Assembly (NCBI GenBank): GCA_000381585.1
Contig: KB906739.1
Location: 62,001 to 126,000 of the forward strand
DNA length: 64,000 nucleotides
Direction: 5' to 3'
DNA from: Acidobacteriaceae bacterium KBS 83
Lineage (GTDB): Bacteria; Acidobacteriota; Terriglobia; Terriglobales; Acidobacteriaceae
The notes under the pieces are model-generated. The model was given only the letters and a program-made list of their open reading frames with translations. It was not told where the DNA came from and did no database searches. Positions 14,136 through 49,615 of the stretch are shown piece after piece. Position numbers and translations under genes: made by a program. The number at the start of each line of letters is the position of its first letter. Position 1 is the stretch's first letter.

Positions 14136-14160
14136 CAGTAATCCCATTCCGGGAATCCAA

Positions 14161-14437
14161 CGCAGAAACCTGCCAAATCTACCCACTCAATTCGCTACAC
14201 TGGAAATAGGGATAAGAAATCAAACGCCACCACACCGGTGGCGTTTCGTATTTTGCAAGCGATTCTGGATGCTCATCACGCTGAACGGTACATCGGAAAT
14301 CTCTCGCCACATCCAATGAATAGACGACTTAAGCCATAAGTCCTTTGTTTAGACTACTTTAGCTATCGGTAGGCAATCTAAGCCATTGAAATCAAGCCGT
14401 TTATAAGGCGCCCTCCCGCAGCGGGAGGGGGGAGGGG
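14161..14437 (+). repeat. Composite intergenic element, copy A (promoter-like box, hairpin, 29-bp-period repeats, G-rich palindrome)
   Basis: This copy lies in the 412-bp gap before ispG. In order it holds: a box 14161-14211 with cgcagaaa.ctgcca and tacactggaaatagg; a perfect 10-bp hairpin AAACGCCACC/GGTGGCGTTT (14222-14231/14237-14246); two related 20-21-bp units starting 14312 and 14341 (29 bp apart); and a palindrome CCCTCCC..GGGAGGG running into GGGGGGAGGGG (14411-14437). The same parts in the same order recur at 49303-49615. The first 51 bases of the two boxes align without a gap, and the distance from hairpin to palindrome is 164 versus 162 bp. No ORF is present. Confidence 0.75.
14222..14250 (+). 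terminator. Hairpin within composite element A
   Basis: AAACGCCACC / GGTGGCGTTT with a 5-base loop, followed by cgtatttt. It could end a short transcript begun at the TACACT box at 14196-14201, about 50 nt upstream, or end the transcript of the upstream gene. Confidence 0.55.
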
Positions 14438-49302: not shown

Positions 49303-49615
49303 CGCAGAAAGCTGCCAGATTTATCGCGTCAACCGGATAGACTGGAAATAGGACAAACTTCGGCTACCCCGAAATCCTGCCATCCCGATGAGACCCTCGC
49401 AAAACGCCACCATTGCGGTGGCGTTTTCGCTTCTCTGGGGTGGAGTACCCGATGGCGACGCATAGGAGGAGCGACTGACGCAACGCTAAGTCCATTGGCT
49501 GGACATATTTACGCGTAACTCCAATGGATGGACATATTTAGGCATCGGAAGACCACCCAACTTCTTGATTCTGTTGCCTTCCACCGAGGCCTCCGGCACC
49601 GGAGGGGGGAGGGGG
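49303..49615 (+). repeat. Composite intergenic element, copy B
   Basis: This second copy of the 14161-14437 element lies in the 424-bp convergent gap between the small charged gene and the GT2. It has the box (49303-49353, cgcagaaagctgccagat ... tagactggaaatagg), an extra small hairpin CTTCGG..CCGAA, the main hairpin AAAACGCCACC/GGTGGCGTTTT (49401-49411/49417-49427), two 21-bp units (49491-49511 and 49520-49540; 19 of 21 identical; 29 bp apart) and the palindrome CCTCCGG/CCGGAGG running into GGGGGGAGGGGG (49590-49615). No ORF is present. Confidence 0.75.
49401..49431 (+). terminator. Hairpin within composite element B
   Basis: Perfect 11-bp stem AAAACGCCACC/GGTGGCGTTTT with a 5-base loop, followed by cgcttctc. 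The arms match the hairpin of copy A almost exactly. Confidence 0.6.

What the first reader, a model, noticed from the sequence alone, without database searches (positions are those of the whole stretch)
14161..14437. Composite intergenic element with ordered promoter-like box, hairpin, 29-bp-period repeats and G-rich palindrome
Two distant intergenic regions (14161-14437 and 49303-49615) share the same ordered parts. The first 51 bases align gap-free, the CGCCACC/GGTGGCG hairpin is nearly identical, two repeat units stand 29 bp apart in both, and the hairpin-to-palindrome distance is 164 versus 162 bp. This is more than chance and is not explained by any gene. It could be a small-RNA family with its own promoter and terminator, or a mobile or regulatory element.
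Basis: seen in the sequence. Interest (0 to 1): 0.65.

Follow-up and report, generated by a model that had tools for sequence, protein, structure and literature searches.

The report
Dispersed polar chromosome element at skew jumps
The two matching intergenic stretches are copies of a roughly 300-base DNA element that occurs about 60 times in this soil bacterium and 18 to 76 times in six related genomes counted in full, always pointing the same way (where this could be tested) relative to a strong local strand bias that normally marks where DNA replication starts, which hints that the element may be tied to replication start sites scattered around the chromosome.

Summary
The host genome (Acidobacteriaceae) has about 60 copies. 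Every copy combines module A (46 bp, promoter-like, -10 box TAnnnT), a variable gap (an intrinsic terminator in about half) and module B (two 25-bp sites 29 bp apart, a third site, a G-tract/palindrome). Profile models find it across one family, with 18-76 matches in each of six genomes counted in full. B shows almost no RNA covariation, so it looks like a DNA-level element, not a conserved small RNA. Neighbouring genes share no function. Two of two testable orthologous copies kept their place, and copies have also spread as discrete units. Unexpectedly, the element is polar with respect to strand composition: in 24 of 24 testable copies from three genera the A side carries C>G at third codon positions. 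The sharpest upward skew jumps lie 1-4 kb from an element, mostly on its B side; equally abrupt downward jumps are absent. This is the signature of replication initiation. My best, only partly supported, reading is a dispersed origin-like (start or restart) element. The main rival is an orientation-biased single-strand mobile element. No replication, binding or transcript data were available.

The parts
14143..14156 (+). copy 1: left-end motif CCCATTCCGGGAAT (family form about TTCCCAAWNCGGGAAC)
   Evidence: a similar motif recurs upstream of A in most copies; start of similarity between the spread copies L024+ and L044
14166..14211 (+). copy 1: module A, promoter-like (CTGCCA-N20-TACACT-GGAAATAGGG)
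   Evidence: HMM hit in nearly every copy; TAnnnT at the -10 position in 52 of 59 copies against 0.5% background
14222..14254 (+). copy 1: intrinsic-terminator hairpin AAACGCCACC-n-GGTGGCGTTT plus T-run
   Evidence: sequence; other stems with pairing kept in other copies (GCCACGG/CCGTGGC, GCCCGCGA/TCGCGGGC) and terminators in 29 of 59 gaps
14308..14437 (+). copy 1: module B (sites at 14308, 14337 and about 14379, then G-tract/palindrome 14411-14437)
   Evidence: HMM hit, 91 bits; model R1 88.8 bits
49284..49297 (+). copy 2: left-end motif CCCATGTCAGGAAC
49308..49353 (+). copy 2: module A (CTGCCA ... TAGACT 49338-49343 GGAAATAGG)
   Evidence: HMM hit
49401..49427 (+). copy 2: intrinsic-terminator hairpin AAAACGCCACC/GGTGGCGTTTT
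49487..49615 (+). copy 2: module B (29-bp-spaced sites at 49487 and 49516, third site at about 49558, G-tract/palindrome 49590-49615)
   Evidence: HMM 107 bits; model R1 91.9 bits
49617..49628 (+). copy 2: right-end motif AGTCACGTTACC (family form GGTnACGnTACC)
   Evidence: recurs in most copies; end of similarity between spread copies

Best explanation
The element is a polar, protein-binding DNA element of the chromosome that marks, and probably directs, local starts (or restarts) of DNA replication. SHOWN: a family-wide dispersed element of constant architecture, oriented so that DNA on its A side has replication-type strand bias (C excess, and mostly A excess, on the element's + strand, as if forks run from the element towards the A side), with a step of that bias 2-4 kb beyond its B side. 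INFERRED: the three sites in B are bound by an unidentified initiator or adaptor protein. Transcription from A, and the G-tract on the non-template strand, help to open the DNA (R-loop or G-quadruplex). A replisome is loaded nearby and runs mainly towards the A side, with a shorter counter-fork on the B side at some sites.
For: A-side codon-3 GC skew is negative in the element frame in 24 of 24 elements from three genera (g20 mean -0.54, own -0.25, g24 -0.32), beyond 468, 101 and 50 control intergenic gaps. The step from A side to B side is positive: +0.40, +0.23 and +0.27, p <0.0001, 0.0025 and 0.0023. The step lies 2-4 kb on the B side in all three genera and is seen for genes on either strand; AT skew steps too for co-oriented genes in g20 and g24, so transcription alone does not explain it. 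All five up-jumps of 0.8 or more in 1.2 Mb of g20 lie 0.9-4.4 kb from an element; no down-jump reaches -0.8; |D|>=0.7 covers 23 kb up and 0 kb down, which argues against simple inversions. Own genome, 58 copies: corrected skew -0.20 on the B-side 2 kb (50 of 58 negative, p 1e-9) and -0.09 on the A side (p 9e-5). The G063 element strand order is strongly clustered (18 runs vs 34 expected, p <5e-5). B behaves as DNA, not RNA.
Against: No replication, transcript or binding data. Each genome checked has a normal full-length dnaA gene and RNase HI, so neither DnaA loss nor an rnhA-minus state is indicated. The step is 2-4 kb away, not at the element, and is unexplained. Some up-jumps have no element (G026 38.5 kb and 376 kb), and several elements lie inside a domain with no step. 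G046 and G073 strand order is not clustered. Own-genome effects are weak, and at element 14161 the step is small. Fork direction (towards A) is opposite to transcription from A, unlike simple R-loop priming. Skew domains are few (about 16 independent), G059 and G039 are partly duplicates, and element detection and the gene caller are home-made.
Confidence: 0.4

Rival explanations
1. It is an old non-autonomous mobile element that moves through single-stranded DNA (REP/IS200-IS605-like, with a tyrosine transposase acting in trans). Insertion into the lagging-strand template explains its fixed orientation relative to fork direction; the skew jumps come from other causes.
For: Copies L024+ and L044 are 86% alike over 337 bp with unrelated flanks and sharp ends; subfamilies of close copies; no shared neighbour function; many right ends lie within 20 bp of the end of an opposed gene; one Y1 transposase gene in the genome.
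Against: No terminal inverted repeats, target-site duplication or empty site was found. Two of two testable orthologous copies are kept in place and are better conserved than intergenic flanks in a 93% identical pair. The triple-site architecture is kept across many genera of the family. Orientation bias alone does not put up-jumps within 1-4 kb of elements.
Confidence: 0.27
2. It is a polar chromosome-organisation or segregation signal (like KOPS, or a nucleoid-protein site), kept in a fixed orientation relative to fork direction, without starting replication.
For: Polarity with skew, dispersed copies with no gene-function link, DNA-level conservation of three long sites.
Against: Does not explain steps of skew near elements; carries a promoter-like box and often a terminator that such signals do not need.
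Confidence: 0.13
3. It is an end-of-operon module (insulator/terminator with its own promoter) that separates convergent genes.
For: Upstream gene co-oriented in 27 of 41 and downstream gene opposed in 26 of 41 copies; 17 of 41 strictly convergent; terminators in about half.
Against: 14 of 41 copies do not follow a co-oriented gene; about half have no terminator; does not explain the polarity with skew over tens of kb.
Confidence: 0.1
4. It is a small-RNA family with its own promoter and terminator.
For: -10 box in 52 of 59 copies and a terminator in 29 of 59.
Against: RNA body variable in length and sequence; no conserved pairing in module B outside the G-palindrome; weak folding z-scores; no convincing Rfam match.
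Confidence: 0.05

Closest known systems
Multiple, DnaA-independent origins of cyanobacteria (Synechocystis, Nostoc; PMC7198777)
   Same: Bacterial chromosomes with irregular GC skew that are reported to replicate from several sites
   Different: I know of no dispersed sequence element for the cyanobacterial case; here the skew domains are sharp and tied to a defined polar element, and dnaA is present (some of those cyanobacteria also keep dnaA)
oriK / constitutive stable DNA replication of E. coli rnhA mutants (e.g. PMC7045392)
   Same: Proposed start from transcription-made RNA-DNA hybrids away from oriC
   Different: oriK is seen when RNase HI is lacking, and RNase HI is present here; to my knowledge no conserved repeated element defines oriK
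Mitochondrial promoter-CSB II replication-primer region (PMC5027508)
   Same: Promoter followed by a G-tract on the non-template strand
   Different: One locus per genome; synthesis follows transcription direction; no 29-bp sites; analogy only, partly from memory
REP/BIME elements with Y1 transposases; Correia and ERIC intergenic elements (from memory)
   Same: Dispersed, intergenic, palindrome-containing, tens of copies or more
   Different: Longer, promoter plus triple-site architecture, no terminal inverted repeats found, conserved across genera, strongly polar with respect to skew
Skew 'N-domains' with upward jumps at mammalian origins (from memory)
   Same: Abrupt upward jumps, gradual declines between
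   Different: Eukaryotic, Mb scale, no shared sequence element

Membership tests
Replication origin (bacterial, dispersed) | Upward skew jump at the locus | tested here: inconclusive
   met near the jump-associated copies, but displaced 1-4 kb; about half of the g20 copies show no step of their own
Replication origin (bacterial, dispersed) | DnaA boxes | tested here: not met
   1 TTWTNCACA box in 59 elements
Replication origin (bacterial, dispersed) | Replication actually starts there | not testable with these tools
   needs marker-frequency or nascent-strand data
oriK / stable DNA replication | Absence of RNase HI | tested here: not met
   PF00075 present in all 7 genomes
MITE / non-autonomous transposon | Terminal inverted repeats | tested here: not met
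   ends CCCATTTCGGGAAC and GGTCACGTTACC are unrelated
MITE / non-autonomous transposon | Target-site duplication and empty sites | tested here: inconclusive
   no duplication seen by eye in the two clearest copies; no empty site found, few comparisons
MITE / non-autonomous transposon | Spread as a discrete unit | tested here: met
   L024+ vs L044
REP/RAYT system | Y1 transposase flanked by the repeats | tested here: inconclusive
   one Y1 gene at C1:588868; no R1 element match within 60 kb (nearest C1:527343)
Structured small-RNA family | Conserved, covarying secondary structure | tested here: not met
   module B: 5 pairs, all in the G-palindrome, one with a double change; z-scores -0.28 and -1.10. 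Module A plus terminator was not tested with a covariance model
Rfam families | Match above gathering score | tested here: not met
KOPS-like polar signal | Orientation bias along replichores | tested here: inconclusive
   strand order clustered in G063, not in G046 and G073; local skew polarity met

The most novel reading that the evidence does not exclude
Acidobacteriaceae chromosomes use tens of dispersed, sequence-defined, polar replication start sites built from a promoter, three initiator-type sites and a G-tract: a multi-origin bacterial chromosome with a recognisable dispersed origin element.
Probability: 0.28. Interest if true: 0.97.

Novelty: new variant of a known kind. Interest (0 to 1): 0.78.

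Why it matters
Most bacteria are taken to use one origin per chromosome (PMC10331603); the known multi-origin cases, in cyanobacteria, have to my knowledge no defined dispersed origin sequence. A recognisable element sitting at origin-like skew jumps across one bacterial family makes multi-origin (or programmed restart) replication directly testable by sequencing growing cells. Even if replication starts are not involved, this looks like an undescribed polar, family-wide chromosome element with an unknown binding protein; I found no earlier description, but searched few papers and only the open-access library.

Tried and rejected
Small structured RNA: rejected for module B (Rfam). Regulon of a function: rejected, 75 Pfam families among 41 neighbours, only one matched by two of them. 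Plasmid or phage origin: no match at blastn sensitivity (copy 1 against plasmids, copy 2 against phages). Synteny test at ispG: related MAGs have a different upstream region without the element, uninformative. RNase HI loss as cause of oriK-type starts: rejected, gene present. DnaA loss: rejected, dnaA present. DnaA boxes: essentially absent. Autonomous version with a gene between A and B: one copy (C4:276482) has a 624-nt open frame, read by eye as a glucosaminidase-like gene (a family search for it failed on wrong coordinates, and was not repeated), between terminator and B; not a transposase by eye. Simple inversions as cause of skew domains: disfavoured because only upward jumps are very abrupt. 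Target-site duplications: none seen.

Full report
OBSERVATION. Searching the host genome (6.25 Mb, 21 contigs) with each copy gave 33 and 26 blastn matches. A sequence-only profile of module B (R1) gave 72 matches at E<0.01, about 60 distinct elements. Every copy inspected has module A upstream of module B on the same strand, although in two (L249, L254) A is visible by eye but below the search threshold.

ANATOMY. Left to right: a CCCAWTnCGGGAAC-like motif (position varies by some tens of bp); A, TGcCA-N20-TAnnCT-GGAAATAGGG (a -10-like TAnnnT in 52 of 59 copies, 0.5% background); a gap of 39-252 bp (717 in one copy). Copies with gaps of 39-44 bp have no terminator; 29 of 59 copies, with gaps of 50-252 bp, have an intrinsic terminator whose stem sequence differs between copies with pairing kept. 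Then B: two 25-bp sites TAAGTCCTTTGnnTGGACnnnTTTA 29 bp apart, a third, more divergent site about 42 bp on, a palindrome with a G-tract (CCCTCCCGCACCGGGAGGGGGGAGGGG), and a terminal GGTnACGnTACC. Some long forms carry an extra set of sites between A and B. B shows almost no RNA covariation (5 pairs, all in the palindrome, one with a double change) and weak folding z-scores (own mean -0.28, other genera -1.10). I therefore read B as protein sites on DNA; no protein was identified.

DISTRIBUTION. Plain blastn with the B part of copy 2, in 20 relatives, finds it only in the host and one congener. Model R1 gives matches in 58 of 200 genomes of the order, 12 genera, all of the listed ones in the host's family. 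The broader model R2 gives 64 of 399 genomes of the class, 18 genera; all but five are in the same family, and those five are fragmented genomes (74-85% complete) with 1-4 hits each. Match counts in genomes counted in full are 68 (G059), 70 (G039), 76 (G063), 62 (G073) and 50 (G046), and 18 in G045; a few of these are second matches to one element. In other genera the order is usually the same where inspected: promoter-like box (often TATAAT/TATACT), terminator, two sites 29 bp apart, third site, G-tract, GGTACC-like end.

PERSISTENCE AND SPREAD. Between G059 and G039 (93.0% identical over 216 kb aligned), both elements in the collinear stretch are at orthologous places, and from TGTCAAGCCCC to GTACCC they are better conserved than the intergenic flanks; module A has decayed in one of the two. 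Within the host, copies at C6:407.7k and C2:73.0k are 86% alike over 337 bp with unrelated flanks. So the element has spread as a unit, and at least these copies are retained. Neighbour genes are unrelated in function. The host lies near Granulicella MAGs by ispG (85% identity), but their ispG upstream regions differ.

POLARITY. In the complete genome G063, element strands are strongly clustered (18 runs vs 34.4 expected, p<5e-5), while third-codon-position GC skew on the + strand swings between +0.6 and -0.5. In 400-kb stretches of G026, G059 and G039 the skew forms domains of tens to more than 200 kb; the steepest rises lie beside elements and most falls are gradual. In the element frame the A-side 8 kb is C-rich in all 24 testable elements of three genera, about 16 independent domains by my count. 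Against control intergenic gaps (468 for g20, 101 own, 50 g24) the A-to-B step is +0.40 (n=17, p<5e-5), +0.23 (n=4, p=0.0025) and +0.27 (n=3, p=0.0023). A distance profile puts the step 2-4 kb beyond B in all three genera; it is seen for genes of both orientations, though noisily in the host, and AT skew steps as well for co-oriented genes in g20 and g24. Cumulative-skew minima fall 1.3-3.2 kb on the B side in the six clear cases; with 8-kb windows one of the five largest jumps maps 0.9 kb to the A side. All five up-jumps of at least 0.8 lie within 4.4 kb of an element (two of them are orthologues in G059 and G039), while no abrupt down-jump of that size exists; |D|>=0.7 covers 23 kb upward and 0 kb downward. 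The host contig shows the same, more weakly: C7 76.3k, 111.5k (the two window copies), 251.6k and 268.3k; the step is clear at window 49303 and small at 14161. Genome-wide in the host, 58 copies give corrected skews of -0.20 on the B-side 2 kb (50 of 58 negative, p 1e-9) and -0.09 on the A-side 2 kb (p 9e-5).

INTERPRETATION. Abrupt upward jumps with gradual declines, seen for genes on both strands, are what diverging replication forks produce; inversions should give as many abrupt downward jumps. I therefore favour a dispersed, polar replication start or restart element, with DNA opened by transcription from A and the G-tract and an unknown protein on the three sites. Only the polarity and the position are shown; initiation, binding, transcription and R-loops are inferred. 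Points against: dnaA and RNase HI are present; the 2-4 kb offset is unexplained; some jumps have no element and several elements sit inside domains without a step; G046 and G073 strand order is not clustered; forks would run opposite to transcription from A. The main rival is an old single-strand mobile element inserted preferentially into the lagging-strand template; it explains polarity but not the proximity to jumps.

KNOWN SYSTEMS. Most bacteria use one origin (PMC10331603); several cyanobacteria with irregular skew are reported to use multiple DnaA-independent origins (PMC7198777). I found no description of this element, in a limited search of open-access papers.

Noticed in passing
G026/G059/G039 400-kb stretches (L182-L241) and G063 samples (L262-L281): Extremely strong (up to +-0.8 at codon position 3), multiply switching GC skew domains within single bacterial chromosomes, seen for genes on both strands.
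   Followed up: partly
L025, L036, L020, L046 (between A and B): Terminator loops enlarged by a nested palindromic insert of about 110 bp with its own inner hairpin (GCAGCTTTTCCGTTAAGAAAAGCTGC type), itself looking like a small dispersed repeat.
   Followed up: no
L024:2352-2996, L036:2527-3210, L032: A multi-copy family of proteins without Pfam match (ECRHIRPSGEGCRAAALKDSHWCYFHGR type, and fragments) lies near several closely related element copies.
   Followed up: partly
G026 36-48 kb and 368-376 kb of the fetched stretch (C1:3836-3848k, 4168-4176k): Upward skew jumps without a detectable element; near-zero-skew blocks look like recent islands.
   Followed up: partly
L032 (C2:178-185k): Two neighbouring element copies (87% alike over 445 bp) inside what looks like a local duplication with their adjoining genes.
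   Followed up: no
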